Shown here piece by piece: positions 1 through 64,000 of a stretch of 64,000 nt of DNA; the stretch's first letter is position 1; the number at the start of each line of letters is the position of its first letter. The notes beneath the pieces were generated by a model, which was given only the letters and a program-made list of their open reading frames with translations, was not told where the DNA came from and did no database searches. Source of the stretch: Pontibacter populi (GTDB taxonomy: Bacteria; Bacteroidota; Bacteroidia; Cytophagales; Hymenobacteraceae); assembly GCF_019336435.1 (NCBI RefSeq), contig NZ_JAHWXQ010000002.1:496001-560000 (forward strand). Direction: 5' to 3'. The position numbers were made by a program, and so were the translations under genes.

Positions 1-256
1 TTTCCTAAACCAATCGAAGAAGCTGCTTCCTTTACTGATACAGAAATTTAAACTACAGCCTGATTCGGAAGAAGCGAAGTTAAATTTATTAAAAATAACT
101 GCTTTAAAAGCAAGAATACTTAGCCTCAGGAATATTAAAGGTATGCAACAGAATTTTTTTAAAATTCTTACAATTAAACATCAGGTTAATAGGTATAACC
201 AAAGAATGATCACTCCTTCAAAGGCTTCATCCAAACATATAAAAAGTGCTATATAA
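1..256 (+). CDS. C-terminal end of a truncated, unidentified protein
   Basis: An open frame enters from the left edge (first full codon at base 2) and stops at TAA 254-256, giving 84 residues with no start inside the window. The peptide is rich in Lys, Leu, Ile and Gln with an amphipathic, helical look (for example KLNLLKITALKARILSLRN) and no Cys. A competing frame 1 stops after only 17 codons at 49-51, so frame 2 is preferred. I do not recognise the family. The base composition is AT-rich like the following 5 kb. It may be the end of a real gene or a decayed remnant; the upstream sequence would decide. Confidence 0.4.
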   Translation, partial: FLNQSKKLLPLLIQKFKLQPDSEEAKLNLLKITALKARILSLRNIKGMQQNFFKILTIKHQVNRYNQRMITPSKASSKHIKSAI

Positions 257-673
257 GAACTAAAGCTCAATATGATGTCTTGATTCAACATTTCAGCAGA
301 CGAATCTCGCCCTTCATCACATCAACAGCTCCATTAAACAACACATTTACATTCTCTTCCGGATACTTTTCCCGTTTTAACCTGCTTAATGTTTTCAGGG
401 ACAAATTCTGCTATTATACGAACGATTTTAGAACACGGTAAATATAAACATTCTAAAAATTAATATAAACTATTAGCGATCATAATTATTGATATTTCGT
501 AAATAATTGAAAGAAAGTGATTAATTATTCACCTCTTATTATACACCCCAACTTACCATACTAGTACATTAAGTTTACTCGCTGCTGTTTGTTTAGCTCC
601 GGTTAAAGCCTAGTAAGAATTTCGTGCTTTGATGATATTATTTAGAATGCTATCAATTATTATTCTATAGGCT
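257..673. other. AT-rich intergenic region, no gene seen
   Basis: About 420 bases of AT-rich DNA without a convincing reading frame. An antisense frame at 610-966 lies mostly opposite the next real gene and is a shadow. No clear TAnnTTTG promoter box or terminator hairpin was found. It probably contains the 5' regulatory region of the T9SS-exported protein starting at 674. Confidence 0.5.
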
Positions 674-2101
674 ATGATAAAAAAATTTACCCTTCTTGTA
701 ATCGGGATGGTTCTGCTTTCAATAAATCTGCATGCACAATTCAATAGTGTCGAAAACTTAAAAAAAACAGCTATATCTGCTAGTACTGGTGAGAAGCCAC
801 AATCTAAAGTATGGACATATGCCTGCGAACATTGGGCTGTTTTTCCTAATGCAGATGGCACTTTCCTCTGGCAGTTAAACGGAACATCCTGGTCAAAAAA
901 ACTAAAGCTATCTCCTAGTACCACTTCTAAAGCCGATTGTAAGGTTATTGGTAATGTCACGCACATCCTGCTGTTTCAGGGCACTTCTTCTCAATTAGTT
1001 TCTCTTGAGTATAACACTTCCTCAAACAGCTATCGCCTATGGGGACCAAGGGCGGCAACAGTGAGTATAACGCTGGATGCTGATGTGGAAACAGCAACTA
1101 TAGATGTTGATGGAAACGGGCGGATGTGGCTTGCATCAGATGGGCTGGATAAAATAAATGTGAGATGGAGTGATGCACCTTATACAGAGTGGAGCGGGGC
1201 AATAACCCTTGCAACCGGTATAAACATAGATGATATAGGAGCTGTGGTTGCGTTGCCCGGAAAAGTGGGTGTATTCTGGTCAGATCAGAACAGGAAGCAG
1301 TTCGGGTTCAGGACACATGAAGATGGTACAAACCCAACTGTGTGGTCAAAAGACGAAGTACCTGCTTCACAGGCTGCACGAGATGTAGGTAAAGGCATGG
1401 CTAACGATCATATTAACATGGCTGTTGCGAGTGATGGTACCTTGTATTGTGCCATAAAAACTGAATTTAGATTAGAATTTGAAAAATTGCCTTATCCTTT
1501 ACTGGGACTTCTGGTCCGCCGGCCTTCAGGCAAATGGGATGACTTATATGACGTAACAAAAACAGGTACTAGGCCCATAGTTCTGCTGAATGAAAAACTT
1601 AACAAAATACGTGTGGTTTATACTTCGGATGACCCAGGCGGAGATATCATTTATAAAGAGTCAAGTACATCCGACATTATTTTCAGGGAGCCTATAATGC
1701 TGATTAAAGGATTTTATAATGATGTAACGAGTAGTAAGGATAGTGTTGGCTCAGAGGTGGTTATATTAGCTTCAAATAAAAACAATCTGGTTGGAGTACT
1801 TGCATCTGACATACCTGATCCTACAGACATCTGTAATATGAGAGAAATGTTTTTAGCTTACCCTAACCCATTCAATGTAACATCCACACTTCTCTTTAAC
1901 TTCAAACATGAAACTGAGTATGCACTTGTTTTATATGATAGTAAAGGAGCTAAAGTAGCGACAGTAGGTAAAGGCAAATCAGGGGCTGTTATACAAAACA
2001 CGTTGGAATTTAATGGTGATTCACTTGCGCGCGGATTGTACATTTTAAAGCTCCATACGTCAACTAACAACCGATACCTAAAACTTATTAAAGAGAATTA
2101 A
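674..2101 (+). CDS. T9SS-exported propeller-like protein (short paralogue)
   Basis: A 475-residue secreted protein. Residues 1-21 form a signal peptide (Lys-rich start, hydrophobic core, cleavage near HAQ). Residues about 35-380 are a repetitive all-beta domain whose repeats contain Trp-Leu-Ala-Ser-Asp, Arg-Trp-Ser-Asp and Val-Phe-Trp-Ser-Asp elements, suggesting a beta-propeller of the BNR/sialidase-like type. The last 80 or so residues are a T9SS type A sorting domain (start YPNPFN, end LYILKLHT...LKLIKEN), so export to the cell surface is expected. The same propeller domain is repeated in the next gene (2385-4997), so the two are tandem paralogues. Substrate unknown; an adhesin or carbohydrate-binding role is inference. 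The gene is AT-rich relative to DNA beyond 5 kb, which fits an accessory origin. Confidence 0.8.
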   Translation: MIKKFTLLVIGMVLLSINLHAQFNSVENLKKTAISASTGEKPQSKVWTYACEHWAVFPNADGTFLWQLNGTSWSKKLKLSPSTTSKADCKVIGNVTHILLFQGTSSQLVSLEYNTSSNSYRLWGPRAATVSITLDADVETATIDVDGNGRMWLASDGLDKINVRWSDAPYTEWSGAITLATGINIDDIGAVVALPGKVGVFWSDQNRKQFGFRTHEDGTNPTVWSKDEVPASQAARDVGKGMANDHINMAVASDGTLYCAIKTEFRLEFEKLPYPLLGLLVRRPSGKWDDLYDVTKTGTRPIVLLNEKLNKIRVVYTSDDPGGDIIYKESSTSDIIFREPIMLIKGFYNDVTSSKDSVGSEVVILASNKNNLVGVLASDIPDPTDICNMREMFLAYPNPFNVTSTLLFNFKHETEYALVLYDSKGAKVATVGKGKSGAVIQNTLEFNGDSLARGLYILKLHTSTNNRYLKLIKEN

Positions 2102-2384
2102 TTGAATATATCCTGTAAATACATATTCATCTTTCATCTATCTACGAAGGTATATTAACAGTTTACTAACTATTATGTTATATAACCATAATAAGACATA
2201 AAATCATACAACTTCTTAACAGATCCCACTTATAACTATTTACTCCAAACGTTTATTCCTTTGCTCCATTTATAAACATTAAACCGGGCAATGAAATATA
2301 ATTTATATCAGGCTGCCAGCTGAAAGAAAAGGAGGCATGCAGTAACTTGAAATAATCGTGTTTGAGAACTATAAATAGCTAAGT

Positions 2385-4997
2385 ATGTCAAAATATATAC
2401 AATTCATTTTCTTAATAGTCCCCTTTTTTATATCAGTTAATCCAGCTTATGCCTATACCTTAAATCATTTTTCACACGCTTCGCGCAGTGTACCAGAGCT
2501 ATGGCAAAATCCACAGGACGGCATACCTGGAAAAGCAGGAGTTGTAACAAAGGCTGAAAGCCAGGCATATTCTAAAGCAACAACCCCGGCAACTTCTGAA
2601 AATCTAAAGAATAAAGAAAAATCAAAGGAACAGCTCGCTGCAGACGCTGGCTCTTCTGCGGTAGCCGCGCAGGGTTTTACTACTTTAACCAAATTACAGC
2701 CGGTTTCCATTAGTACAAGTACAGGCGAAAAGCCTCAGGCTAAAGTATGGAAATATGCAGGTAAGCACTGGGCTGTTTTACCTAATGCATCCGGCACGTT
2801 TCTGTGGAGATTAGACGGTAACTCCTGGACAAATGTGCTTAAGCTCTCAACTAAGACTACCTCGAAAGCCGATTGTAAAATAGTAGGCCAGGTTGCACAC
2901 ATCTTGTTATTTCAGGGCAGATCTTCACAGATAGTATCTGTAGACTATTTATCTGCCCTGGGTACTTACCAACTCTGGTCAAAGAGAACATCAACAGTAG
3001 GGCTTTATTTTGAAAGTGGCGTTGAGACTGCCACAATTGATATTGATGGGACCGGGCGAATGTGGCTTGCCTCTGACGGAGCGAGCACCATACACGCAAG
3101 GTGGAGTGATTCCCCCTATACTAACTGGAGCGCCCCTGTTACTATAGCCACCGGCGTAACAAGCGACGACATAGGTGCTGTTATTGCTTTACCGGGCAAA
3201 ATTGGCATATTATGGTCTAACCAAAATGCGAAACGGTTCGGATTTAAAACTCATACCGACGGAGCTAGTCCTGCCACGTGGTCTGCCGATGAAATACCCG
3301 CTTCACAGTCAGCTTTAAATATAGGTAACGGTATGGCTGATGATCATCTAAACATGTCTGTAGGGGCAGATGGCGTACTTTATTGTGGAGTCAAAACAGG
3401 ATATGATGTCACAGGATATCCAGAAATAGCCTTGCTTGTTCGTCGTACATCAGGTAGCTGGGATAATTTATATCAAGTTGCACCTTTAGGCACCAGACCT
3501 GTAGTTATATTGAATGAAGCACTGGATAAAGTTAGAGTTGTTTATACTTCAAGTGATACCGGGGGGCCTATTCTCTACAGAGAATCTCCTACCTCTTCAA
3601 TCCAGTTCGGCTCCCAGATGACATTGCTGGATGGAGGTACTTATAATAACTCCACGAGTACAAAAGAGAATTTCACAACAGATATAGTTGTACTTGCTTC
3701 CAGCAGTACGCAGGCAGTTGGTGTGCTTGCAACAGATGGCTCCTCCCTTCAAACAGTTCCGGCTGCTCCCGTATTAGCCGCCCCCGCCAACCAAACTACT
3801 AACATGGCGGTTCCAGTCTCCCTAAGTTGGAATAGCTCAGCAAATGCAAATTCATATGAAGCACAGGTATCTACTTCCTCGTCTTTTTCAACTACAGCTT
3901 TTAGCCAAAGCGGCATCACATCAACGGCAGTTACAGTAAACAGCCTAGCCTATAACACAACATATTACTGGCGCATAAGAGCTGGTAACGAAGCGGGAGT
4001 AAGTGCATGGTCTTCTGTATGGAGTTTCAGCACAGGCAATGAGGTAACTACGCCACCTGTTTCAGCACTTGTAGGCCACTGGAAGATGAACGAGGGGAGT
4101 GGAAACATACTTACAGATGCTTCCGGAGTGGGCAATAATGCAACAATAACTGGTACACCAACCTGGATAAGTGGAAAAGATGGTTTAGCACTACTACTAA
4201 GCGGTTCAAACCAGTATGCTACCGTTGCAGATAATTCATCTTTGGATATTTCAAATACTATTACCCTTTCAGCATGGGTAAGACCAGCTAAAGTAGCTAC
4301 ACAATATATCATCAAGAAATCTTCTAACGGAACAGTCAATGGCTACGAACTTTCATTAGCAAGTAGCGGCTATGTTTTCTTCCGGATCAACCAGGCATCG
4401 GCTGGAGACTCTTACAGAATCAATTCTACGGTGCTTTACCCCAGCGACGGAGTGACCTGGATGCACATAGCAGCTACTTACGATGGCTCTGTGATTAAAC
4501 TATATATTAATGGAACAGAGCATGCATCTAAAGTACTTACTTCGAAACCAGCAATAAGTAGCAACTCCCTCCCCTTAGCCATTGGTGCGCAAAGCGACGG
4601 AGTATATGGATTCAGAGGAGCCATTGATGATGCCCGTGTGTATAACTCTGCTCTTGGAGCATCAGAAATAAGTGCCCTAAGAACTAATTCAGCCACTATA
4701 GTTGCATCACCTTCAGGAGAAACAAAACGTGATGCTATGGAAAAGGAATTTATAGCTTATCCTAACCCTATCTCTTCTACTGCAACTATAAAATTCAGGG
4801 CTGCTTATGAAGGAACATATTCATTAACACTGCACGATATGAAAGGCGGTCTGATCCATATTTTAGAGGACGGACACGCCACTAAGGGTGAAGTCAAGTA
4901 TTTTACACTCCAGAAGTCTGCTTTATCAAAAGGTGTGTATATAGCCCGGTTACGTACTCCAAAAAGAGTCGAGACAATTAAATTAATGGTGAATTAA
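2385..4997 (+). CDS. T9SS-exported propeller-FN3-LamG protein (long paralogue)
   Basis: An 870-residue secreted multidomain protein. It starts with a signal peptide (residues 1-23, ending AYA), then a low-complexity linker rich in Ala, Ser and Lys. Residues about 100-450 are a propeller-like domain closely similar to the whole mature part of the upstream gene (shared STGEKPQ, TSKADCK, ILLFQG, GRMWLASDG). Next come a fibronectin type III domain (about 460-550, typical TTYYWRIRAGN and WSSVWSFST), a LamG/concanavalin-like jelly-roll (about 560-760, LVGHWKMNEGSGN ... DDARVYNSALGASEI), and a C-terminal T9SS sorting domain (YPNPISSTATIKF ... GVYIARL). FN3 plus LamG suggests a surface glycan-binding or adhesive protein; this is inference. 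A perfect inverted repeat follows the stop at 5011-5056. Confidence 0.85.
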   Translation: MSKYIQFIFLIVPFFISVNPAYAYTLNHFSHASRSVPELWQNPQDGIPGKAGVVTKAESQAYSKATTPATSENLKNKEKSKEQLAADAGSSAVAAQGFTTLTKLQPVSISTSTGEKPQAKVWKYAGKHWAVLPNASGTFLWRLDGNSWTNVLKLSTKTTSKADCKIVGQVAHILLFQGRSSQIVSVDYLSALGTYQLWSKRTSTVGLYFESGVETATIDIDGTGRMWLASDGASTIHARWSDSPYTNWSAPVTIATGVTSDDIGAVIALPGKIGILWSNQNAKRFGFKTHTDGASPATWSADEIPASQSALNIGNGMADDHLNMSVGADGVLYCGVKTGYDVTGYPEIALLVRRTSGSWDNLYQVAPLGTRPVVILNEALDKVRVVYTSSDTGGPILYRESPTSSIQFGSQMTLLDGGTYNNSTSTKENFTTDIVVLASSSTQAVGVLATDGSSLQTVPAAPVLAAPANQTTNMAVPVSLSWNSSANANSYEAQVSTSSSFSTTAFSQSGITSTAVTVNSLAYNTTYYWRIRAGNEAGVSAWSSVWSFSTGNEVTTPPVSALVGHWKMNEGSGNILTDASGVGNNATITGTPTWISGKDGLALLLSGSNQYATVADNSSLDISNTITLSAWVRPAKVATQYIIKKSSNGTVNGYELSLASSGYVFFRINQASAGDSYRINSTVLYPSDGVTWMHIAATYDGSVIKLYINGTEHASKVLTSKPAISSNSLPLAIGAQSDGVYGFRGAIDDARVYNSALGASEISALRTNSATIVASPSGETKRDAMEKEFIAYPNPISSTATIKFRAAYEGTYSLTLHDMKGGLIHILEDGHATKGEVKYFTLQKSALSKGVYIARLRTPKRVETIKLMVN

Positions 4998-5010
4998 TGC
5001 ATGATAACCT

Positions 5011-5056
5011 TTAGCTCTAAAGGAATTGAAGACAATTCTAATTCCTTTAGAGCTAA
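5011..5056 (+). terminator. Perfect 17-bp inverted repeat after the T9SS gene
   Basis: TTAGCTCTAAAGGAATT at 5011-5027 pairs perfectly with AATTCCTTTAGAGCTAA at 5040-5056 around a 12-base loop, 14 bases after the stop of the long T9SS paralogue. There is no strong T-run, so it may be a bidirectional or mRNA-stabilising hairpin as well as a terminator. Confidence 0.6.
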
Positions 5057-5245
5057 TAACTTCAACCTATACCAGAAAACTACTGGTAACTGGACATATT
5101 TCAGTATCAGTCAGATAACTTCTTATTGCTTAATAAACCTGCCCAGCTTATACTAAATAAGAGAAACAGAACCCAATGAATGCATTCACTTGGAATTCTG
5201 TAAAACTTTTAGCTATTTATGTAAGGAAAGATCCAAAACCGGGCT

Positions 5246-5253
5246 TACCTTTG
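5246..5253 (+). promoter_or_regulatory. Bacteroidota -7 promoter box for the metal operon
   Basis: TACCTTTG matches the Bacteroidota -7 consensus TAnnTTTG and lies 19 bases before the ATG at 5273. No good TTTG -33 element is evident at the usual spacing. It is the best candidate promoter for the HYC_CC_PP gene and possibly the RND efflux operon behind it. Confidence 0.5.
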
Positions 5254-5272
5254 TAAGAGGCATAACATAATC

Positions 5273-5704
5273 ATGAAACTATACCGCCAGGTCTTACTGC
5301 TTACACTTACATTGCTGGTGCTTGTCTCCTCGACAGGTGTGGCTGTGGGTATGCATATCTGTGGTGGTGAGTTGCGCGATGTTACCTTCTTTGGGGCTAA
5401 GGCAGATTGCCCGATGGAAGCAGCAAAAGAGAAAACGCCTGCATGCCATGCACCTAAGCAAACCGATGACGACAAAGCCTGCTGCCAGGATCATCAGGTA
5501 ATAATGAAGCGCTTTGATGTTGCTTCAAAGCATACGGCAATAACACTCCATAAACTTCAGGACATTAAATTCATAGCTGCTGTAAAAGTAGTTATCCTGC
5601 AATTCTTCGCTCCTGAAGCCGATCAAAATCCAACTTACGCTCTTTACGAGTCTCCCCCACTGGCCCGCGACATACCGGTGCTGGTGCAATCTTTCCTGCT
5701 ATAA
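5273..5704 (+). CDS. HYC_CC_PP family small exported Cys-rich protein
   Basis: A 143-residue protein with an N-terminal hydrophobic signal or anchor (residues 5-26) followed by the three marks of the Bacteroidota HYC_CC_PP family: a His-x-Cys start (here MHICGG, His28/Cys30), a Cys-Cys pair (C70-C71 in ACCQDH), and a C-terminal Pro-Pro (SPPLARDIPVLVQ). Cys46 and Cys58 add further thiols. These proteins usually sit next to heavy-metal efflux or TonB receptor genes, and here the gene directly precedes a CusA-type RND pump. A periplasmic metal-binding or sensing role is inferred; no biochemical function is known to me. Confidence 0.8.
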   Translation: MKLYRQVLLLTLTLLVLVSSTGVAVGMHICGGELRDVTFFGAKADCPMEAAKEKTPACHAPKQTDDDKACCQDHQVIMKRFDVASKHTAITLHKLQDIKFIAAVKVVILQFFAPEADQNPTYALYESPPLARDIPVLVQSFLL

Positions 5705-5860
5705 CCTTATAGTTTACCCATGCCATAGTTTGGCTGGCGTAGCTGTGTCTTTTTACCTGGCATAGTTAAACCGGACAAAACTGTATAGTTTGGCATGCCC
5801 TTTCATCAGCTGCTTTGCTGCATTTCCTTAATTTCCTGATAAGGTTAATCTTATACTTAC

Positions 5861-7147
5861 ATGATTGCGAAATTAATTTCCTTTTCGCTCCGTAACCGTT
5901 ATATCGTGCTGCTAATTTCGGCGGCGCTGTTCGGTTGGGGCTTATATTCGGTACAGACAAACAAGGTAGATGCCATTCCTGACCTGTCTGAAAACCAGGT
6001 GATCGTTTTTACCGAATGGATGGGCCGCAGCCCGCAGATCATCGAAGACCAGATCACTTACCCGCTGGTAACTAACCTGCAGGGTTTGCCCGAGGTGAAA
6101 TATGTGCGCGGCAGCTCCATGTTTGGCATGAGCTTCATCTATGTCATTTTCGAGGATGAGACCGATGTGTACTGGGCCCGTGAGCGGGTATTGGAGCGCC
6201 TTAGTTCAGTTGGCAATATGCTGCCGGAAGGAGTTGCCCCTACCCTTGGTCCCGACGGAACTGGCGTAGGTCACATCTTATGGTACACGCTGGATGCACC
6301 AGGTATGGATCTGGGCGAGCAGCGCGCTATCCAAGACTGGTATGTAAAATTCGGTTTGCAAAACGTGAAAGGTGTCAGTGAAGTAGCCTCGTTTGGTGGC
6401 TTCCAAAAGCAGTACCAGATCACGCTGGACCCAAACAAACTAACCTACTATAAGCTCTCTGTTCCGCAGGTTATTCAGTCCATTCGGGCTAATAACAACG
6501 AGGCCGGCGGTCGCAAATTCGAGCTTTCCGACATCGGTTACATTATTAAAACCACCGGTTATTTACAGTCGGCTGAAGAAATACAGAACATTGCCATTGC
6601 TACAAACAACACCATACCAGTACGGGTGCGCGATGTAGCCACTGTGCAAATGACCGGCGAAAGCCGCCTGGGTATATTTGACCTGAATGGTGAAGGCGAA
6701 GCCGTAGGTGGTATAGTGGTGATGCGTTACGGCGAGAACGCGGACGAAGTGATCGACAATGTAAAACTGAAGATGACCGAAGTAGCCAAAGGCTTACCGG
6801 AAGGCGTGAAATTCAACATTGTGTACGACCGTAGCGGCCTTATCAATGAGTCTATAGATTCAATCAAAAAGACACTAATAGAGGAAATGCTGGTGGCTTC
6901 AGTGATCGTATTCCTGTTCCTTTTCCATTGGCGAAGTGCTTTGGTTATACTCATCCAGTTGCCGCTTTCTGTTGCCATCGGTTTTATACTGCTTAACGCA
7001 TTTGGTATCTCCTCCAATATCATGTCGCTGACAGGTATTGCCTTATCTATAGGTGTAATTGTGGATGATGCCATTGTAATGGTAGAGAATGCTTACCGGC
7101 ATTTGGCAGAAGCCCAGAAAGGCAAAGAATGGATGGAAGAAGAGTAA
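5861..7147 (+). CDS. cusA: CusA/CzcA heavy-metal RND pump, N-terminal half (split gene)
   Basis: A 428-residue N-terminal part of a heavy-metal RND efflux pump. It contains TM1 (residues 10-30), the first periplasmic porter region (YPLVTNLQGLPEVKYVRGSSMFGMSFIYVIFED is typical of the CusA/CzcA family), and TM2-TM4 ending with GVIVDDAIVMVENAYRHLAEAQ, the TM4 segment with the proton-relay aspartates. Translation stops at 7145-7147 inside the cytosolic loop after TM4. The remainder of the pump is a separate ORF at 7277-9175 in the same frame, separated by 129 bases with several in-frame stops and a dispersed palindromic repeat. No conserved residues appear to be missing between the halves. It may work as a two-piece pump or be a recent pseudogene. 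Neighbouring adaptor and outer-membrane genes suggest Cu(I)/Ag(I), but the metal is not proven. Confidence 0.85.
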   Translation: MIAKLISFSLRNRYIVLLISAALFGWGLYSVQTNKVDAIPDLSENQVIVFTEWMGRSPQIIEDQITYPLVTNLQGLPEVKYVRGSSMFGMSFIYVIFEDETDVYWARERVLERLSSVGNMLPEGVAPTLGPDGTGVGHILWYTLDAPGMDLGEQRAIQDWYVKFGLQNVKGVSEVASFGGFQKQYQITLDPNKLTYYKLSVPQVIQSIRANNNEAGGRKFELSDIGYIIKTTGYLQSAEEIQNIAIATNNTIPVRVRDVATVQMTGESRLGIFDLNGEGEAVGGIVVMRYGENADEVIDNVKLKMTEVAKGLPEGVKFNIVYDRSGLINESIDSIKKTLIEEMLVASVIVFLFLFHWRSALVILIQLPLSVAIGFILLNAFGISSNIMSLTGIALSIGVIVDDAIVMVENAYRHLAEAQKGKEWMEEE

Positions 7148-7164
7148 AGTGTATGAGCTAAAGC

Positions 7165-54173: not shown

Positions 54174-54209
54174 GAGAATCTGTTTATACTTTTAACACTA
54201 ACACGGCTG

Positions 54210-55823: not shown

Positions 55824-55830
55824 GGTTTGG

Positions 55831-56664: not shown

Positions 56665-56669
56665 GGGTA

Positions 56670-57170: not shown

Positions 57171-57303
57171 AACAGTGGTATTTATTGTCCGAACCAGGAT
57201 CTGCAGGATCTTAAGACGTTCAGGGTTATATGTCAGGAAAAGTAAAAAGCTTAAACTTCTGTCCATCCCTTAATCCTGAGAACCCTGGTTCTGACATGGT
57301 AAT

Positions 57304-58266
57304 TTATTTTACTACTTCTTTTTCCATCTCGATCGCTTTCGGGAACAGGATGTTATTCTCTAAGTGGATGTGGCGGAAAAGATCATCTTCAAACTCCTGC
57401 AGCTTTTTGAAAGCTACGGTATAAGTAGCGCAGGCATCAGCCGGCAACGTATAGTCGTTTGTTAGCTCACGGATCATTTCAAGCTCACGGCCGGCGTGGT
57501 CGTGCTCCATTTCCATCATGTTGATCGGGTTCTGGATAGATCCGAAAGATGCCGGCTCCATTTTCACACCGCTCTTCTTGGCCTCGTCCAGCTGCTTAAT
57601 GTACGGGAACAGCACGCGCTCTTCTTTCGGCATATGCGATTCCAGTTCATTGGCAACGTTGGTAAAGTGCTTCACTACTTCCAGCAATTCCGGGTGGCGC
57701 TGACCGTGTACGCGGGCAATTTTGGTAGTGTATTCGTACAGGGCAGGTATTGCTTCGCGCACATATTTATGGTGCATGTTCACGATATAATCTGCCAGGA
57801 AGCCTGGCTCCCATTTATCGTACTCAGCCTGGCGGCTCTGCTCGGCTTCGTCCATGGCAACCAGTTCAGCTTCCAGCTGATCCTGGCTAATGCCTTTTTC
57901 CTTACAAACTTGTGCTACCGACTTTTTACCACCGCAGCAGAAATCGATACCGAACTTTTTAAAGACCTGTGCCTTGCGATAATCTTTTGCTACCAGTTCG
58001 CCTACTGTTTCACCTTCTTCGGGTGTAAGTTTTGTAATGCGTACTTCCCATACTTCAGGGCCTTGCTCCAGGTAATCAAACTTAAATATGTTACCACGCT
58101 CGCCCAGTAACTGGTAATACACCGGCTTCGGATCGTGGTCGTTATGTATAATAAAAGAGTCGCCGCCTTTCATGTTGTCAAACCATTCAAAAATGGTTGG
58201 GTGCTTCATGCGTGGCTCCAGAACGGTTACATCTAATTTTCTTTCTGCGATTTGTGTGGTTTCCAT
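57304..58266 (-). CDS. ric: Iron-sulfur cluster repair di-iron protein (Ric/ScdA) with DUF2249 domain
   Basis: A 320-residue protein from ATG 58266. Residues 10-80 are a DUF2249 domain (LDVTVLEPRMKHPTIFEWFDNMKGGDSFIIHNDHDPKPVYYQLLGERGNIFKFDYLEQGPEVWEVRI). Residues 88-130 are the ScdA_N domain with the Cys110-Cys111 pair (FGIDFCCGGKKSVAQVCKEKG). The rest is a hemerythrin four-helix domain (HHKYVREAIPALYEYTTKIARVHGQRHPE, HMPKEERVLFPYI, MEHDHAGRELEMI, HIHLENNILFPKAI). Ric repairs Fe-S clusters after NO or oxidative damage. It heads the stress gene group. Confidence 0.93.
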   Translation of the reverse strand: METTQIAERKLDVTVLEPRMKHPTIFEWFDNMKGGDSFIIHNDHDPKPVYYQLLGERGNIFKFDYLEQGPEVWEVRITKLTPEEGETVGELVAKDYRKAQVFKKFGIDFCCGGKKSVAQVCKEKGISQDQLEAELVAMDEAEQSRQAEYDKWEPGFLADYIVNMHHKYVREAIPALYEYTTKIARVHGQRHPELLEVVKHFTNVANELESHMPKEERVLFPYIKQLDEAKKSGVKMEPASFGSIQNPINMMEMEHDHAGRELEMIRELTNDYTLPADACATYTVAFKKLQEFEDDLFRHIHLENNILFPKAIEMEKEVVK

Positions 58267-58300
58267 ATTGGTTAATTTTGTTGTTAGTATCAATCACCGG

Positions 58301-58378
58301 TGTAAAGGTAAACGACGATTTTTTAAAATAAAAGATAAAAAGGTATTTTATTATTTTATTAAACGCATTACCTTTACA
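58301..58378. promoter_or_regulatory. TGTAAAGGTAA inverted repeat upstream of ric
   Basis: TGTAAAGGTAA (58301-58311) and TTACCTTTACA (58368-58378) are a perfect 11-bp inverted pair separated by 56 AT-rich bases. On the minus strand the promoter-proximal copy includes TACCTTTA, one base off the -7 consensus TAnnTTTG, 35 bases before the ric start. The pair may be two operator half-sites or a promoter with a looped operator. Confidence 0.5.
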
Positions 58379-58752
58379 ACAGGTTCAACAACAGTATATT
58401 TAAGTTCAGAAAAAATAATTTAAGCGCCTTAAACACTAATTATAAAATTGATTTACAGGCACTTAAATTAACAATACAAGTTTACCACTATCTGCAAAGG
58501 GCGAAAATGATCGAAGTCACTTATTTGGGTGACCTTGCTCATCCTGATTGGTTTTTATAGTTGATAGCTTAGTGAACTCAAAGTATAGCTGTTTTATATA
58601 TAGCCCCTTTAGTTACTGTCTTCAGACTCCGGTTATCGGTTTACAGGAGACAGCTTAACTAGAGTTACCGGCCTTTTTGGTCCAGAGCCCATCGCAGGCA
58701 AACGCGCAACAAGTATTCAGAAACCCTTAAAAAAATTTATAGAGCTACCCCT
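58379..58752. other. Divergent regulatory region between ric and nrdJ
   Basis: About 370 bases of AT-rich, gene-free DNA. It holds the FNR-like site at 58507-58520 and, overlapping it, AAGTCAC-N8-GTGACCTT around 58514-58536. A TATAGTTGATAG motif lies near 58556. No clean -7 box for nrdJ was found. Confidence 0.45.
58507..58520. promoter_or_regulatory. CRP/FNR-like site between ric and nrdJ
   Basis: ATGAT-CGAA-GTCAC differs from the site before norB (ATGACGCAAGTCAT) at four positions and shares its 5-4-5 geometry. It is almost centred between the divergent starts of ric (58266) and nrdJ (58753). A Crp/Fnr-type regulator is suggested; none is encoded in the window. Confidence 0.4.
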
Positions 58753-61700
58753 ATGAAGAAAAGTAAAAGAGCAGCCGGCCTGTCCTTCGCCCGGCATTTT
58801 ACCACCGCAGCGCAAAATGCCTACGACATGTTCCGTTACGAGCTCCGCTCCTCCACTATCCGCAACCCGACCGGCGATGTGGTGGCAGAGCTGAACGACG
58901 TGGAAGTACCCGCACAATGGTCGCAGATCGCGACCGATATCCTTGCTCAGAAGTACCTGCGTAAAGCGGGCGTACCTCAGGCCGATGGTAGAACCGGTTC
59001 TGAGAAATCAGCGAAGCAAGTAGTACACCGCCTGGTAAAATGCTGGCAGGACTGGGGAAGTAAGTATGGCTATTTTGCATCTGAGAAAGATGCCCAAGTG
59101 TTTTATGACGAACTGGTGTATATGCTGCTGGGCCAGTATGCCGCACCCAACTCGCCGCAATGGTTTAACACCGGCCTTTACAATTCCTATGGCATTTCAG
59201 GTAAATCGCAGGGCCATTATCATGTAGACCCTGACACAGGTAAAATGAAGGAGTCGACCTCAGCGTTTGAGCGGCCACAGCCACATGCCTGTTTCATTCT
59301 TTCGGTGCAGGACGATTTGGCGCAGAAAGGCGGCATAATGGATCTGCTGGTGCAGGAAGCGCGGGTATTTAAGTACGGCTCGGGCGTAGGCACTAACTTT
59401 TCAAACATCCGGGGCAAGGAAGAAGAACTATCCGGCGGCGGCACTTCGTCAGGACTGATGTCATTTTTAAGGGTAAGCGACCGGGCAGCCGGAGCTATAA
59501 AATCGGGTGGCACTACGCGGCGTGCTGCTAAAATGGTGTGCCTCGACCTGGACCACCCCGAGATTCAGGAATTTATAAACTGGAAGAAGGACGAAGAGAA
59601 AAAAGTAGCTGCCCTGATTGCTGCCGGCTATTCCGGCGATTTTGAAGGAGAGGCTTACAACACCGTATCAGGCCAGAACTCCAATAACTCGGTGCGTGTA
59701 CCCAATACCTTCTTTAAAGCGCTGCACCAGAACGGCGACTGGCACCTGACTGCCCGAACAACTGGCAAAATCATTAAATCAATACCTGCACGTAGCTTAT
59801 GGAACCAGATTGCGGATGCAGCCTGGGCTTGTGCGGACCCGGGTCTGCAGTTCGATACAACTATAAATGAGTGGCATACCTCTCCTGCTGAAGGCAGAAT
59901 CAACGCTTCTAATCCGTGCTCGGAATATATGTTCCTGGACGATACAGCCTGCAACCTGGCATCGCTTAACCTGCTGCGCTTTTTTGATGAAGAAAAACAG
60001 AAATTTGACGTAGCCGCTTTTGAACATGCCTGCCGACTATGGACGGTGGTGCTGGAGATATCTGTACTGATGGCGCAGTTCCCTTCCGAAGCCGTGGCGC
60101 AACGCTCTTACGACTATAGAACCATAGGTTTAGGCTATGCCAACTTAGGTGCCTTACTGATGGTACAGGGCCTGCCCTACGACAGCGAGGAAGCCCGGGC
60201 TTTATCAGCCGGCATTACATCACTGATGACAGGCACAGCTTACCGTACTTCCGCAGAAATGGCGGCCAGCCTGGGAGCGTTTGCAAAATACGACCAGAAC
60301 CGCGAAGCCATGCTCCGCGTGATCCGTAACCACCGCTTTGCCACGTACGACCAACCTGAAAACTACGATAACCTGAGTATACAACCCCATGGCCTGGACC
60401 AGAACCTTTGCCCGGATTACCTGTTAAAAGCAGCCCAAAACTCCTGGGACGATGCGTTGCAACAAGGCGAAAAATACGGCTACCGAAATGCCCAGGCCAC
60501 TGTTATCGCCCCAACCGGAACGATCGGTTTGCTGATGGATTGCGACACGACGGGCGTGGAGCCTGATTATGCGTTGGTGAAGTATAAAAAACTATCGGGC
60601 GGCGGCTATTTCAAGATCATCAACCAGTCTATTCCAGGTGCGCTTACCAAACTGGGCTATAGTTCAGAAGAGATCGAAACTATAGTTAACTATGCCAAAG
60701 GCTATAGTTCGCTAAACGGCGCGCCACACATTAACCCGGAATCTCTTCTCGAAAAAGGCTTTACGGAAGAAGAAATTGGTACGCTGGAAGCAGCCTTGCC
60801 AAAAGCTTACGACCTGACCTCACTCTTTAATGTTTATACACTTGGCGAAGCTTGCTTAGAAAGATTGGGCTATAGTTCAGAGCAGTATCAAAAACCAGGT
60901 TTTAACCTGCTGCAGGTGTTGGGCTATAGTCCGAAACAGGTGGAAGAAGCGAACGACTACGTTTGCGGAACCATGACCGTGGAAGGAGCACCTTACCTGA
61001 AGCCGGAACATTACGCTGTTTTTGATTGTGCCAACCGTTGCGGCAGCAAAGGCCAGCGCTTTATTCACGCCGAAGGTCATATTAAAATGATGGCTGCCGT
61101 GCAACCGTTCATATCCGGGGCGATCTCTAAAACAATAAACCTGCCCAACGAAACAACCCGGGAAGAAGTAGCACATTGCTATGAATTGTCGTGGGAACTT
61201 GGCTTGAAAGCCTGCTCTATTTACCGTGATGGCAGCAAACTTTCGCAGCCGCTTACATCCAAAAGCAGCAGTACGGAAACTGAAGAGAAAACAGAAGAAA
61301 AGGTAACAATAACGGAAGCTCAATTTAACGCCGAGCAGGTGTTACAGGCAGCAAAAGCCATCCTTTCGGATGCCTCAAATAACGGTTTCCGGGAAGAGCT
61401 GACTCGCATGGTGGAACGACGCAAACTACCGGACAAACGCAACGGATTTACCCAGAAAGCAAAGATCGACGGACACACCGTTTACATCCGAACCGGCGAG
61501 TATGCGGATGGTTCGCTGGGCGAATTGTTCATTGACATGTACAAGGAAGGGGCTTCGTTTAGGTCTATTCTGAACTGCTTTGCCATTTCAGTGTCGCTGG
61601 GTCTGCAGTATGGTGTGCCGCTGGAGGAATTTGTGAACCGATTTACCTTTACCCGTTTCGAGCCGGCTGGCCGCGTAGAGCATCCGAATATCAAATCGGC

Positions 61701-62061
61701 TACATCGGTGTTCGACTACATTTTCAGGATGCTGGGCTATGAGTACCTCAACAGGAAAGACCTGGTGCACGTGCATACCGAAGAACAGGAAATTATAGCT
61801 GAGAAGCCTGTTGCTGAAAGCTTACCGGAGCAGGCAGCAACTATAGTTCCGGAAACGTCAACCACGAAAAGCTCCGGGAAAAACTATTCTGTTGTTACCC
61901 AAAGCAGAACAGTGCTGATGGAGCAGATGGAGCAGACGCAGCAGGTGCTGGCCAGCATGATGGGCGATGCGCCGATCTGTAACGTATGCGGGCACATAAC
62001 TATACGCTCCGGTACCTGTTATAAATGTTTGAACTGCGGCAATAGTTTAGGCTGTAGTTAG
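58753..62061 (+). CDS. nrdJ: Vitamin B12-dependent ribonucleotide reductase (class II)
   Basis: A 1102-residue class II RNR. N-terminal marks: FTTAAQNAYDMFRYELRSS, APNSPQWFNTGLYNSYGI, RPQPHACFILSVQDDLAQKGGIMDLLVQEARVFKYGSGVGTNFSNIRG. The catalytic Cys is in NPCSEYMFLDDTACNLASLNLLRF; APTGTIGLLMDCDTTGVEPDYALVK is the second barrel motif. Residues about 625-760 hold the repeated helical insertion of this family (LGYSSEEIETIVNYAKGYSSLNGAPHINPES). A zinc-ribbon tail ends the protein (CNVCG ... CYKCLNCGNSLGC). It reduces ribonucleotides with adenosylcobalamin, independent of oxygen. Five copies of CTATAG fall within 60658-60929 of this gene. Confidence 0.97.
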   Translation: MKKSKRAAGLSFARHFTTAAQNAYDMFRYELRSSTIRNPTGDVVAELNDVEVPAQWSQIATDILAQKYLRKAGVPQADGRTGSEKSAKQVVHRLVKCWQDWGSKYGYFASEKDAQVFYDELVYMLLGQYAAPNSPQWFNTGLYNSYGISGKSQGHYHVDPDTGKMKESTSAFERPQPHACFILSVQDDLAQKGGIMDLLVQEARVFKYGSGVGTNFSNIRGKEEELSGGGTSSGLMSFLRVSDRAAGAIKSGGTTRRAAKMVCLDLDHPEIQEFINWKKDEEKKVAALIAAGYSGDFEGEAYNTVSGQNSNNSVRVPNTFFKALHQNGDWHLTARTTGKIIKSIPARSLWNQIADAAWACADPGLQFDTTINEWHTSPAEGRINASNPCSEYMFLDDTACNLASLNLLRFFDEEKQKFDVAAFEHACRLWTVVLEISVLMAQFPSEAVAQRSYDYRTIGLGYANLGALLMVQGLPYDSEEARALSAGITSLMTGTAYRTSAEMAASLGAFAKYDQNREAMLRVIRNHRFATYDQPENYDNLSIQPHGLDQNLCPDYLLKAAQNSWDDALQQGEKYGYRNAQATVIAPTGTIGLLMDCDTTGVEPDYALVKYKKLSGGGYFKIINQSIPGALTKLGYSSEEIETIVNYAKGYSSLNGAPHINPESLLEKGFTEEEIGTLEAALPKAYDLTSLFNVYTLGEACLERLGYSSEQYQKPGFNLLQVLGYSPKQVEEANDYVCGTMTVEGAPYLKPEHYAVFDCANRCGSKGQRFIHAEGHIKMMAAVQPFISGAISKTINLPNETTREEVAHCYELSWELGLKACSIYRDGSKLSQPLTSKSSSTETEEKTEEKVTITEAQFNAEQVLQAAKAILSDASNNGFREELTRMVERRKLPDKRNGFTQKAKIDGHTVYIRTGEYADGSLGELFIDMYKEGASFRSILNCFAISVSLGLQYGVPLEEFVNRFTFTRFEPAGRVEHPNIKSATSVFDYIFRMLGYEYLNRKDLVHVHTEEQEIIAEKPVAESLPEQAATIVPETSTTKSSGKNYSVVTQSRTVLMEQMEQTQQVLASMMGDAPICNVCGHITIRSGTCYKCLNCGNSLGCS

Positions 62062-62070
62062 TAAAGCAAT

Positions 62071-62129
62071 TTGTCATCTCGACGATAGGAGAAATCTGAA
62101 TCAGATCTCTCCTATCGTCGAGATGACAA
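62071..62129. repeat. Near-perfect 59-bp palindrome (TGTCATCTCGACGATAGG family)
   Basis: 29-base arms starting TTGTCATCTCGACGATAGG at 62071 and ending CCTATCGTCGAGATGACAA at 62129 pair with one mismatch around a single central base. It is the best-preserved member of the family found inside cusA (7165-7233) and as a half copy at 28660-28691. It lies between nrdJ and the globin gene and may act as a terminator. Confidence 0.9.
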
Positions 62130-62155
62130 TACTTTTGATTTAAGTAACTTGCAAC

Positions 62156-62551
62156 ATGACGGAAAAGAAAGACATACTTAGTTTAGAGGATGTAAAACTG
62201 CTGGTGGATACCTTCTACACCAGGGTACGTGCCGATGAATTGCTGGGACCCATATTTGACGAACGCATTCAGGACAGATGGGCGAAGCACCTGGATATCA
62301 TGTACCGTTTCTGGCAAACTGTTTTACTGGAAGAACTTACCTATCAAGGCAATCCGGGTGTGAAGCATATAACCTTGCCTGTAGACGAACAACATTTCGA
62401 GCGCTGGCTCCAGATCTTTTACAAAACGATAGACGAGCTTTTTACCGGCGAGAAAGCGGAAGAAGCAAAGTGGCGTGCACAGAAAATGGCTGAAATGTTT
62501 GCCAGTAAAATTGAATTCTATAAACAGAACAAAGGCAGAACCATCCTGTAA
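62156..62551 (+). CDS. Group III truncated haemoglobin
   Basis: A 131-residue globin of the trHbP type: DVKLLVDTFYTRVRADELLGPIFDERIQDRWAKHLDIMYRFWQTVLLEELTYQGNPGVKHITLPVDEQHFERWLQIFYKTIDELFTGEKAEEAKWRAQKMAEMFASKIEFY. The proximal His is in EQHFERWL; the FW and YRFWQTVLL residues match group III. Members bind NO and O2, so NO scavenging or respiration support fits the neighbourhood. The next gene starts 15 bases later and is probably co-transcribed. Confidence 0.9.
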   Translation: MTEKKDILSLEDVKLLVDTFYTRVRADELLGPIFDERIQDRWAKHLDIMYRFWQTVLLEELTYQGNPGVKHITLPVDEQHFERWLQIFYKTIDELFTGEKAEEAKWRAQKMAEMFASKIEFYKQNKGRTIL

Positions 62552-62565
62552 ATTTTAAACTATAA

Positions 62566-62994
62566 ATGGCACCCGAACACTACCTGATATTGCTGACCTT
62601 TTTATGGGTTGGCTTTGTGAGCGCGATCAGTTTTATGGAAGCCTGGCTGAAGTTCAGGGCACCGGGCGTAACCTTGGCAATTGGCCTGAGCATTGGCCGC
62701 CTGATCTTTAGTGGAATGAATAAAGTGGAATGGTTCTTTGGACTGGCCTCGTTGGCACTACTTTTTGTGAGCGGATTTTTCGGCGATTCGATGGCATTCT
62801 TTCTTTATATCCCGATCTTAATCCTGCTTCTACAATCCATTTGGCTGCTACCTGCCATGAATAAGCGCGCTGAACTGGTGATCTCAGGTGCAGAATTACC
62901 GAAGTCAGTCTTACACTTTTACTACATCGGAGCTGAGTTGGTAAAGGTTATTATGATAGTCAGTTTCGGTGTTACGTTACTCGGAACTCTGTAA
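62566..62994 (+). CDS. Hypothetical four-span membrane protein
   Basis: A 142-residue protein with about four hydrophobic helices (LILLTFLWVGFVSAISFMEAWL, GLSIGRLIFSG region, FFGLASLALLFVSGFFG, IPILILLLQSIWLLPAM, KVIMIVSFGVTLLGTL). A conserved-looking GMNKVEWFFG loop connects helices. No signal peptide or known domain. It follows the truncated haemoglobin by 15 bases, so the two are probably expressed together; function unknown. Confidence 0.7.
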   Translation: MAPEHYLILLTFLWVGFVSAISFMEAWLKFRAPGVTLAIGLSIGRLIFSGMNKVEWFFGLASLALLFVSGFFGDSMAFFLYIPILILLLQSIWLLPAMNKRAELVISGAELPKSVLHFYYIGAELVKVIMIVSFGVTLLGTL

Positions 62995-63037
62995 ACTACA
63001 GCAACAGGAATTAGACTAAAAATGCTGGGCTCTCAAA

Positions 63038-64000
63038 CTATACTTTCTTGAAAGCAGATGGAGTTTTAGTTTCAGCAGTGACGCTACCAAGTAGCAGTTG
63101 TGAGATAAAAAATAGTAAAACGCCTACCGGCAAAAAGATACTTACTCCAAAAAGCATCTCGTTATAGTTCGGTATAGCTCCGGCACCAACCCAGTAGAAA
63201 GTTCCCTGCAGAAACAGCAAGGCTTCGCTACTGATAAAGCCAACTATAAACAGTCCTAGCCCCCACCGGCTTATAGTTGATCTGAGGGTTAACCAAGCTT
63301 GCTGCACACAAAACGCAACTATAAAAAAGCTTACAAACCCGATCAGAACCAAATGTAGGTACCCGATGATAAAGTTGCGCAGCTGGTATGCCAGATCTGC
63401 CATATACGGGAAAGCGGTGGAGAATTGCATCAGCGTTTTAAGCACAAAAGCAGTTGCGGCAAGCAAAACGATAGCTCTGCTCCAGTTACCAAATAAGCTT
63501 AACAGTTTACTACGGACCGGCCAAACTATAGCAACCAAAACTACCAGCGCTACTACCTGCGTCAAAGCCGCAACTCCACCCACCAGGTAAACTATAGCAT
63601 TGGGTTTTATCCAGAGTACAGACAACAAATATGCTGGTAAACAAGCCCAGAACATCAGCCTGAAAAACAGCAAACTATAGTTGCGGTTAAAGCTTATCTT
63701 ATACCGCTCCAAAAGCCAGAACAACAAACTAAATACAGCAAATGTCAGCCAGCCGTTGTACAGAAAATGCAGGTAAAAATAGATGGCATTATAGTATAGT
63801 TCGGTCCCGCTATGCCCGGTAGCCATGATCGGTCCCATCGCCCACGGCCCCAGCGAAGAAAGTGCCAGGAAAAACAAAGCTGCCTTCATAAAACCGAAAG
63901 ACACACTATAGTTACCACCACTTACATTTGCCGCTTTTGAATCTTTTAAAAACCGGTAAATGAACCAGTAAGTAAGCAGAATATGGAGCGTTGAGAAAGT
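63038..64000 (-). CDS. Polytopic membrane protein, N-terminal part beyond the window
   Basis: At least 320 residues. The frame has no stop up to the right edge, and the GTG at 63904 is not the start: codons from 64000 to 63905 read FSTLHILLTYWFIYRFLKDSKAANVSGGNYSVSFGF in frame. About eight membrane helices are visible. Histidines lie in STLHILLTYW, ATGHSGTELYYNAIYFYLHFLYNGWL and GYLHLVLIGFVSFF, a haem-helix-like pattern reminiscent of, but not clearly homologous to, oxidase-like proteins such as the one at 54516. Probably annotated as hypothetical elsewhere. The stop is close to the end of the convergent membrane-protein gene at 62994. Confidence 0.65.
   Translation of the reverse strand, partial: TFSTLHILLTYWFIYRFLKDSKAANVSGGNYSVSFGFMKAALFFLALSSLGPWAMGPIMATGHSGTELYYNAIYFYLHFLYNGWLTFAVFSLLFWLLERYKISFNRNYSLLFFRLMFWACLPAYLLSVLWIKPNAIVYLVGGVAALTQVVALVVLVAIVWPVRSKLLSLFGNWSRAIVLLAATAFVLKTLMQFSTAFPYMADLAYQLRNFIIGYLHLVLIGFVSFFIVAFCVQQAWLTLRSTISRWGLGLFIVGFISSEALLFLQGTFYWVGAGAIPNYNEMLFGVSIFLPVGVLLFFISQLLLGSVTAETKTPSAFKKV

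What the first reader, a model, noticed from the sequence alone, without database searches (positions are those of the whole stretch)
1..64000. A highly iterated AACTATAGTT palindrome (HIP1-like) across the window
The palindrome AACTATAGTT and its halves CTATAGTT/AACTATAG recur in coding and non-coding DNA. I counted at least 16 instances of CTATAGTT or AACTATAG between 9.2 and 17.6 kb by hand, including 9213, 9301, 9325, 9955, 10680, 13985, 14771 and 16766, while random sequence predicts about one per 33 kb over both strands. Related TTATAGTT and AACTATAA forms are also common. Inside genes it is read as Thr-Ile-Val, Ala-Ile-Val, Asn-Tyr-Ser or Gly-Tyr-Ser. Such a short palindrome repeated genome-wide recalls HIP1 (GCGATCGC) of cyanobacteria, and I know of no description of this motif.
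Basis: partly seen in the sequence, partly recalled or inferred. Interest (0 to 1): 0.85.

Follow-up and report, generated by a model that had tools for sequence, protein, structure and literature searches.

The report
Genus-wide DNA tag with dialects
The DNA of this Pontibacter bacterium carries about ten thousand copies of a short one-sided tag, AACTATA followed by A or G, and related species carry differently spelled versions of it, much like the tags that some bacteria use to recognise and take up DNA of their own kind.

Summary
The palindrome reading is wrong. The unit is one-sided, AACTATA plus a purine: 10,614 copies, one per 405 bp, no strand bias. AACTATAGTT is two overlapping copies, no commoner than chance overlap predicts.

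The genus is Pontibacter. 41 of 50 genomes carry a strong tag of form NNN-TATA-R in a clade-specific dialect: AAC, AAG, AGG, GG(G) or TATATAA (the last two from 20-40 kb only). Three genomes carry AAG and AAC together. Copies are conserved between AAC relatives above local controls, never exact in aligned AAG relatives (0 of 110), and sometimes replaced in place by the local dialect. One foreign-looking island is poor in them.

This most resembles the DNA-uptake-sequence dialects of Neisseriaceae, not HIP1. But Pontibacter shows no convincing type IV pilus ATPase, so uptake would have to be pilus-free, as in Riemerella. Uptake is untested and no receptor was identified. Ten paper searches (capped lists) showed no description. 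New variant of a known kind; mechanism about 0.58.

The parts
9213..9222 (.). AACTATAGTT dyad (two overlapping copies of the tag)
9953..9962 (.). AACTATAGTT dyad
14769..14778 (.). AACTATAGTT dyad
16764..16773 (.). AACTATAGTT dyad
22944..22953 (.). AACTATAGTT dyad
26891..26900 (.). AACTATAGTT dyad
32794..32803 (.). AACTATAGTT dyad
34249..34258 (.). AACTATAGTT dyad
40472..40481 (.). AACTATAGTT dyad
46377..46386 (.). AACTATAGTT dyad
48677..48686 (.). AACTATAGTT dyad
54695..54704 (.). AACTATAGTT dyad
60678..60687 (.). AACTATAGTT dyad
61839..61848 (.). AACTATAGTT dyad
63673..63682 (.). AACTATAGTT dyad
9001..64000 (.). Tag-rich segment with 158 copies of the 8-bp unit AACTATAR. Start positions of all 82 + strand copies in the window (1-64000): 1096, 2367, 4784, 9213, 9267, 9936, 9953, 10906, 11818, 12444, 13254, 13284, 13945, 14769, 15902, 16400, 16483, 16764, 17524, 17534, 17541, 17978, 18792, 19528, 20504, 20720, 22640, 22880, 22944, 25586, 25711, 26891, 27739, 28739, 28788, 28936, 30267, 31728, 32716, 32794, 33347, 34185, 34249, 36132, 36748, 37258, 37924, 39031, 39204, 39854, 40472, 43300, 45893, 45910, 46020, 46377, 46836, 46959, 47046, 47643, 48201, 48669, 48677, 50726, 51346, 51515, 52757, 54695, 54792, 54921, 55374, 56178, 56895, 59859, 60678, 61839, 62558, 63242, 63317, 63524, 63590, 63673. 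Lowest positions of all 82 - strand copies: 4696, 5707, 7452, 9215, 9301, 9325, 9955, 10680, 12092, 13985, 14352, 14698, 14771, 14862, 16766, 17206, 17571, 18082, 20995, 22566, 22946, 23027, 23150, 25979, 26203, 26567, 26893, 27765, 28364, 28439, 28491, 28498, 28517, 28585, 28593, 28693, 29322, 30588, 30926, 31004, 31238, 31268, 32412, 32451, 32619, 32796, 34122, 34128, 34163, 34251, 37356, 39007, 39068, 39982, 40336, 40474, 41383, 41418, 43166, 43393, 44722, 46379, 48679, 51964, 52044, 52102, 53684, 54697, 55556, 55875, 56091, 56520, 58555, 60657, 60680, 60702, 60870, 61841, 63162, 63271, 63675, 63906.
1..9000. Tag-poor segment (6 copies of AACTATAR). Its ORFs include two large ORFs at 674-2101 and 2385-4997 and CusA/CzcA-like heavy-metal efflux pieces at 5861-7147 and 7277-9175 (efflux label recalled from the translations, not tested). 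Perhaps acquired late (inferred, not tested)

Best explanation
The tag (AACTATAR here) is a self-recognition word for DNA, working like the DNA uptake sequences of Neisseriaceae. A sequence-specific DNA-handling protein, most likely a cell-surface receptor of a pilus-free uptake system feeding ComEC, prefers DNA carrying NNN-TATA-R. Imported kin DNA replaces resident alleles by recombination, so copies of the word accumulate wherever the protein-coding need allows (molecular drive). When the receptor's preference for the first three letters changes, a new dialect spreads and the old one decays. Shown here: genome-wide iteration, one-sidedness, strand balance, synonymous tolerance, intergenic excess, clade-specific dialects sharing TATA, co-occurrence and in-place replacement of dialects, conservation above local background, low density in one foreign-looking island, a ComEC domain in all 50 genomes. 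Inferred: that a recognition protein exists, that it acts in uptake, that drive maintains the copies.
For: Copy number: AACTATAR 10,614 in 4.30 Mb (5321 + / 5293 -), control word 473. No strongly polarised bin among ten 46-kb bins (extremes 69:49, 45:29, 3:9), against strand-polar words such as Chi or KOPS. Coding: 535 copies against 55.8 (sd 3.5) in ten shuffles of synonymous codons; intergenic density 5.76 per kb against 1.34 in coding. Dialects across 50 genomes: AAC, AAG, AGG by whole-genome counts, GG(G) in G041 and TATATAA in G035 from short stretches. On a tree of one 4.6-kb rpoB region the dialect labels need 8 changes against a minimum of 21 in 500 label shuffles; the 12 AGG genomes form one clade (support 0.997) and 7 AAC genomes, mixed ones included, another (1.0) (G049 labelled AAG and G017 none for this count). 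Conservation in coding DNA against 7-mers at 15-30 bp from the same sites: G028 169/220 v 478/1278 (p 5e-28), G015 26/48 v 59/277, G038 23/48 v 48/273. In aligned DNA of three AAG genomes 0 of 110 own copies are exact, while permuted words are exact at 5, 6 and 9%. In-place AAC-to-AAG: 10/131, 9/57, 7/57, 5/37 in G013, G049, G045, G011 against 15/955, 10/346, 5/336, 7/197 for the same C-to-G change in permuted words. Residual AAGTATA in the own genome is also AAGTATA in the mixed relatives at 13/20, 7/9 and 5/6 sites, as expected of remnants of an older dialect. Island: 0.44 against 2.38 copies per kb. Precedents: eight DUS dialects with a fixed core, two dialects in one Simonsiella genome, and overlapping dyads there (PMC3630211 sections); Riemerella transforms without detected pilus homologues (PMC8459023) and R. 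columbina is reported to prefer its own DNA (PMC7965970 passages).
Against: No transformation, uptake or binding data for Pontibacter were seen in the papers listed. PF00437, the pilus/secretion ATPase, matches only a weak stretch of 38-66 of 370 positions in the 50 genomes (best 25.9 bits, 3 of 50 just over the cut-off, while 13 of 14 control genomes are over it), so the classical pilus route looks absent. The ComEC domain is present in all 50, including the 8 genomes without a strong tag, so it does not explain who has the tag. DUF5689, a domain of a surface protein needed in Riemerella, is in only 22 of 50 genomes, does not follow tag presence, and in G000 lies beside a SusD-like ORF. Non-overlapping inverted pairs, a terminator hallmark of DUS, are not enriched: in intergenic DNA at 0-10 bp there are 37 direct pairs against 15 inverted. 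Two AAG relatives show little in-place exchange (G016 1/36 v 3/207; G019 1/37 v 3/209). The residual own AAGTATA sites are AAGTATA at only 1/4, 2/4 and 1/3 sites in three pure AAG relatives (few sites) and at 33/66 and 3/11 in AAC relatives G028 and G015. Intergenic conservation is not above control in G013 (3/16 v 8/50). That the island is foreign is inferred from its genes, and its borders were set after seeing the density.
Confidence: 0.58

Rival explanations
1. HIP-type by-product: a DNA methyltransferase or nickase that recognises the word biases mismatch repair so that copies accumulate, as Elhai proposed for cyanobacterial HIPs.
For: HIPs are also iterated genome-wide and are swapped for alternate HIPs in some relatives (PMC4390886, abstract and parts of the text). 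Sister genera here carry CTAG-centred words, partly palindromic, that would fit this reading better.
Against: The unit is not palindromic, whereas HIP1, its extensions and the alternate HIPs are. Single-letter neighbours are enriched at many positions, while one-off HIP1 words deviate mainly at the two ends.
Confidence: 0.15
2. Genome-wide binding sites of an internal chromosome protein (nucleoid-associated, segregation or recombination factor) whose specificity drifts between clades.
For: High density, conservation, intergenic excess and neighbouring direct copies, commonest at 7, 8 and 11 bp (19, 13 and 8 pairs; also 8 each at 20, 21 and 54 bp), would also suit a DNA-binding protein.
Against: No strand polarity of the Chi/KOPS type. 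Several rewritings of thousands of sites within one genus, with 8 genomes lacking a strong tag, would be odd for a housekeeping function. The rest is inference.
Confidence: 0.2
3. Composition, codon-usage or insertion-element artefact.
For: AT-rich words rise in AT-rich intergenic DNA; most of the excess vanishes under unmasked order-4/5 Markov models.
Against: Masked-background expectation stays 59-87 against 1142; ten-fold excess over synonymous shuffles; almost no flank information beyond about 10 bp, so not copies of an element; no exact copy in aligned DNA of AAG and AGG relatives (0 of 110 and 0 of 38).
Confidence: 0.02

Closest known systems
DNA uptake sequence (DUS) dialects of Neisseriaceae
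   Same: Non-palindromic short word, thousands of copies, clade-wise dialects with a conserved core (CTG there, TATA here), a genome with two dialects in nearly equal numbers, overlapping dyads in that genome (PMC3630211 sections 6 and 11), more copies in non-coding DNA than expected (PMC1939737 passages). kingDUS of K. oralis, 5918 in 2.4 Mb, has the same density, about one per 405 bp (my division of the numbers).
   Different: No convincing type IV pilus ATPase in Pontibacter; shorter unit (7-8 bp); no excess of inverted pairs; uptake undemonstrated; phylum Bacteroidota.
Uptake signal sequence (USS) of Pasteurellaceae
   Same: Core word in coding and non-coding DNA, non-palindromic, no orientation bias, mismatched forms enriched (PMC1939737 passages).
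   Different: USS has long AT-rich flanks (29-bp consensus); here there is almost nothing beyond about 10 bp.
HIP1 and alternate HIPs of cyanobacteria
   Same: Genome-wide iteration and replacement by another word in some relatives (PMC4390886 abstract).
   Different: HIPs are palindromic and accompany methyltransferases; this unit is asymmetric. Methyltransferases untested.
Pilus-free natural transformation of Riemerella (Flavobacteriales)
   Same: Same phylum, no pilus homologues detected, ComEC-based (PMC8459023 passages); R. columbina reported to prefer its own DNA in competition (PMC7965970 passages).
   Different: No iterated word of this strength seen there: the top 10-mers in the visible part of their Table 3 are A-rich. 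DUF5689 does not follow the tag here.
Chi / KOPS
   Same: Short over-represented non-palindromic words (recalled).
   Different: Those are strand-polar (recalled); this is strand-balanced.

Membership tests
HIP (highly iterated palindrome) | Iterated far above chance genome-wide | tested here: met
HIP (highly iterated palindrome) | The iterated unit is a palindrome | tested here: not met
   AACTATA[G/A]; dyads below the product model in three dialects
HIP (highly iterated palindrome) | Cognate DNA methyltransferase present | not tested
   methyltransferase genes not surveyed; methylation not visible in sequence
DNA uptake sequence (DUS/USS) | Thousands of copies of a non-palindromic word, both strands, no polarity | tested here: met
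DNA uptake sequence (DUS/USS) | Denser in non-coding DNA, tolerated in coding DNA | tested here: met
   5.76 against 1.34 per kb; 535 against 55.8 in synonymous shuffles
DNA uptake sequence (DUS/USS) | Dialects with a shared core that follow phylogeny | tested here: met
   single-gene tree, root uncertain
DNA uptake sequence (DUS/USS) | Sparse in recently acquired DNA | tested here: inconclusive
   one 86-kb stretch 0.44 per kb against 2.38, with type I restriction and RNA-repair genes, and window 1-9000 with 6 copies; that these were acquired is inferred, not tested, and the borders were set by the density
DNA uptake sequence (DUS/USS) | Inverted pairs acting as terminators (DUS) | tested here: not met
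   direct pairs outnumber inverted ones at 0-10 bp, though copies are dense just after stop codons (18.3 against 6.1 per kb)
DNA uptake sequence (DUS/USS) | Type IV pilus machine with a minor-pilin receptor | tested here: not met
   PF00437 (the ATPase only) without a convincing hit in 50 genomes; pilins themselves not searched
DNA uptake sequence (DUS/USS) | DNA carrying the word is taken up or transforms better | not testable with these tools
   needs an assay
Chi / KOPS | Strand polarity along the replichore | tested here: not met
   5321/5293 genome-wide; no strongly polarised bin in 464 kb; replichore borders not mapped

The most novel reading that the evidence does not exclude
Pontibacter has a self/non-self DNA recognition system of a new kind: a pilus-free uptake receptor reading NNN-TATA-R, whose specificity has been rewritten several times within one genus, carrying thousands of genomic sites with it and setting barriers to gene exchange; CTAG-centred words in sister genera may be a second such system.
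Probability: 0.4. Interest if true: 0.92.

Novelty: new variant of a known kind. Interest (0 to 1): 0.8.

Why it matters
Uptake-sequence dialects are known to me only from two proteobacterial families with type IV pili (recalled). The same genomic signature in a genus of Bacteroidota without a convincing pilus ATPase would show that sequence-tagged DNA exchange evolved again with another machine, and would give a route to the unknown outer-membrane DNA receptor of that phylum: find the protein that binds the tag. Genomes carrying two dialects, with old-dialect words still at orthologous sites, make the question how a recognition word is rewritten thousands of times directly testable. It may also have practical use: DNA for transforming Pontibacter species might need the host's own word.

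Tried and rejected
Rejected: the palindrome as unit; a composition or codon artefact; an insertion-element origin (no flanks); strand-polar words; the type IV pilus route; DUF5689 as the receptor (22 of 50 genomes, not following the tag). Led nowhere: ComEC, in 50 of 50 genomes; non-overlapping inverted pairs as terminators. Paper searches: Pontibacter with DNA uptake, 0 papers; the words themselves as whole words, at least 2 of 4, 0 papers (longer words containing them would not match); Pontibacter with methylation or competence terms (none of the 12, 10 and 10 papers listed contains Pontibacter, out of 691, 16,102 and 511 that hold enough terms); uptake sequences and Bacteroidota (nothing on this motif in the 20, 2 and 12 papers listed, out of 30, 2 and 318). 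Searches were on HIP1 and on Riemerella. Not done: survey of methyltransferase genes or pilins, gene-by-dialect association, any methylome.

Limits: k-mer checks of other genomes used stretches of 15-40 kb, mostly contig starts, so weak words can be missed. Of the 20 stretches, two (2.8 and 1.6 kb) were dropped as shorter than 8 kb. G047 was judged only by word searches, because its first two contigs are about 1 kb. The order-level sample is 7 genomes of 15 kb and one of 4.9 kb. The tree is one gene region. Gene calls are simple ORF calls; 25 of 939 copies lie across ORF borders. The stretches L168 and L021 of G049 overlap by about 10 kb, so their counts are not independent.


Full report
What was claimed and what is there. 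That is correct: 15 full words against 0.08 expected and 88 CTATAGTT on both strands against 2.31, with all eight cited positions present. The window is part of a 4.304-Mb genome in 11 contigs (C4:496001-560000), in which AACTATAGTT occurs 1124 times and the word read backwards 5 times.

Where it is. NadA from the window is 96% identical to that of Pontibacter vulgaris and 95% to that of P. fetidus, and 50 genomes are held for this genus.

The unit. In 464 kb of the own genome AACTATA occurs 1142 times against 78.5 expected at order 1. The next base is G 47%, A 36%, C 13%, T 5%; further positions carry little information, and almost none beyond about 10 bp. Under Markov models of order 3, 4 and 5 the expectation rises to 230, 555 and 983, which I take to be because the sub-words come largely from the motif; with the copies masked it is 59-87 at all five orders. 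AACTATAGTT is two overlapping copies: 88 sites, while the product of the half-site excess predicts 149. In the AAG and AGG dialects the corresponding dyads number 16 (predicted 117) and 4 (predicted 64) in the stretches read. So the palindrome is an accident of one dialect.

Dialects. In the 21-kb named loci the commonest excess word differs by clade. Whole-genome counts over 50 genomes: AACTATAR 9,803-11,475 in five genomes (G000, G009, G015, G028, G038); AACTATAR 2,403-6,494 together with AAGTATAR 6,157-8,448 in three (G013, G045, G049; G015 also has 3,991 AAGTATAR); AAGTATAR 3,144-9,637 in 19; AGGTATAG 2,823-5,222 in 12. Two further genomes have other words, seen in the stretches read and not counted genome-wide: G041 GGTATAA (36 against 2.5 in 40 kb) and G035 TATATAA (26 against 0.8 in 20 kb). 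G017 is weak. Eight have no strong word (G008, G014, G027, G029, G033, G036, G037, G047), though AAGTATAR is at about 2-3 times its control in G014, G027, G036, G037 and G047. That makes 5+3+19+12+2+1+8 = 50. Consensus per dialect: AACTATA[GA]; AAAGTATAA; CAGGTATAGC. Outside the genus none of the 150 other genomes sampled from the family shows more than about twice the control for AAGTATAR.

Phylogeny. On a tree of 4.6 kb of DNA around rpoB the AGG genomes form one clade (12, support 0.997) and the AAC genomes, mixed ones included, another (7, support 1.0); the labels need 8 changes, the minimum in 500 shuffles being 21 (G049 labelled AAG and G017 none for this count). AAG is spread over several branches and may be ancestral; the root is a midpoint and not secure. 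Genomes without a strong word fall in several places. G049 lies apart from the AAC clade on this tree although its NadA is 96% identical to the window's, which suggests exchange between dialect groups.

How copies behave. Against 7-mers 15-30 bp from the same sites, own copies in coding DNA are conserved exactly at 169/220 v 478/1278 in G028, 26/48 v 59/277 in G015, 23/48 v 48/273 in G038, 43/114 v 118/650 in G013, 21/52 v 54/300 in G049 and 19/55 v 58/314 in G045. Intergenic copies are above control in G028 (55/101 v 143/423) and G015 (7/8 v 4/20) but not in G013 (3/16 v 8/50); the other three had too few to print. In aligned DNA of three AAG genomes none of 110 own copies is exact (G019 0/37, G016 0/36, G011 0/37; permuted words 5% of 209, 6% of 207, 9% of 197), and in two AGG genomes none of 38 (permuted words 5% of 133 and 1% of 147). 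AACTATA is replaced in place by AAGTATA at 10/131, 9/57, 7/57 and 5/37 sites in G013, G049, G045 and G011 (the same C-to-G change in permuted words: 15/955, 10/346, 5/336, 7/197), but only 1/36 and 1/37 in G016 and G019 (3/207, 3/209) and 2/330 in G028 (17/3035). The AAGTATA left in the own genome is also AAGTATA at 13/20, 7/9 and 5/6 sites in the mixed relatives, 33/66 and 3/11 in AAC relatives G028 and G015, and 1/4, 2/4 and 1/3 in three pure AAG relatives. In G013 both words occur in all seven 20-kb stretches read, AAG at about twice AAC or more; both also occur in the three stretches of G049 and the one of G045.

Placement. Of 939 AACTATAR in 464 kb, 535 lie inside ORFs (55.8, sd 3.5, in ten synonymous shuffles) and 379 between them, 1.34 and 5.76 per kb. 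Inside genes 316 are in gene orientation and 219 opposite; shuffles give 47 and 16. Convergent gaps hold 8.96 per kb, tandem 5.32, divergent 4.31; the first 10 bp after stop codons 18.3 per kb against 6.1 before starts. Non-overlapping inverted pairs are not favoured; close direct pairs are, commonest at 7, 8 and 11 bp. An 86-kb stretch (C4 about 260-346 kb, borders set by eye from the density) has 0.44 copies per kb against 2.38 elsewhere. Of ten of its ORFs scanned, families include type I restriction HsdR, a helicase, RtcB, a TROVE protein and a Pnkp-type RNA-repair protein, but also a MatE transporter, a histidine kinase and an esterase; one had no family. That it was acquired is inferred.

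Mechanism. One-sidedness, strand balance, dialects with a fixed core, two-dialect genomes, and low density in a foreign-looking island match the uptake-sequence model of Neisseriaceae and Pasteurellaceae as described in the sections and passages I read (PMC3630211 sections 6 and 11; PMC1939737 passages). HIPs as described in PMC4390886 (abstract, passages, part of section 3.4) are palindromic and tied to methyltransferases. Pontibacter shows no convincing pilus ATPase but has the ComEC domain in 50 of 50 genomes; Riemerella transforms without detected pilus homologues (PMC8459023, abstract, passages and one section) and R. columbina is reported to prefer its own DNA (PMC7965970 passages). The receptor is unknown: DUF5689, a domain of one of the Riemerella proteins, is in 22 of 50 genomes and does not follow the tag. 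I put the uptake reading at 0.58, an internal DNA-binding protein at 0.2, and a methylation by-product at 0.15.

Novelty. Ten paper searches, most with ranked and capped lists, showed no description of this motif or of uptake-sequence dialects in Bacteroidota; most subscription papers are outside that library. I rate it a new variant of a known kind, with uptake itself undemonstrated.

Noticed in passing
G052, G061, G094, G106 (loci L212, L214, L281, L287): Sister genera of the family carry a second kind of iterated word centred on CTAG: ACCTAGGG 3106 and 2980 times in G052 and G061 (control 2 and 1), 896 in G106 (control 11), 337 in G094 (control 0); local forms ACCTAGGG, CCCTAGGG, ACCTAGGT. 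Partly palindromic, so a better HIP candidate.
   Followed up: partly
G090 (L279), G123 (L220): CCTACCC in excess in 20 kb (28 against 3.5; 27 against 2.4) in two genomes of genus g5.
   Followed up: no
G001:C1:1944098-1946626: 39 listed AGGTATAG about every 66 bp (the list is cut there), as in a CRISPR array whose repeat contains the word; it inflates that genome's count. CRISPR is a guess, not tested.
   Followed up: no
50 Pontibacter genomes: The 8 genomes without a strong tag are larger (mean 5.9 Mb) than the 41 with one (mean 4.6 Mb; G017 left out; rounded sizes; Mann-Whitney p 1.6e-5, not corrected for kinship).
   Followed up: partly
G020, G040, G038 comEC: The ComEC reading frame looks interrupted or short in G020 (431 aa, one stop inside the match), G040 (314 aa, one stop) and G038 (561 aa), against 702-736 aa in the rest.
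   Followed up: no
G000 C4 about 260-346 kb (L009-L013): Tag-poor stretch with type I restriction, RtcB, TROVE/Ro60 and Pnkp-type RNA-repair proteins.
   Followed up: partly
L248:940-2226 (G000) and relatives: DUF5689 protein beside a SusD-like ORF and, by eye, a phospholipase-D-like ORF; a DUF5689 protein of similar length is in six of the seven AAC-clade genomes (SusD and PLD labels recalled, not tested).
   Followed up: partly
Pontibacter NadA: No NadA match at E <= 0.001 in 21 of 50 genomes of the genus.
   Followed up: no
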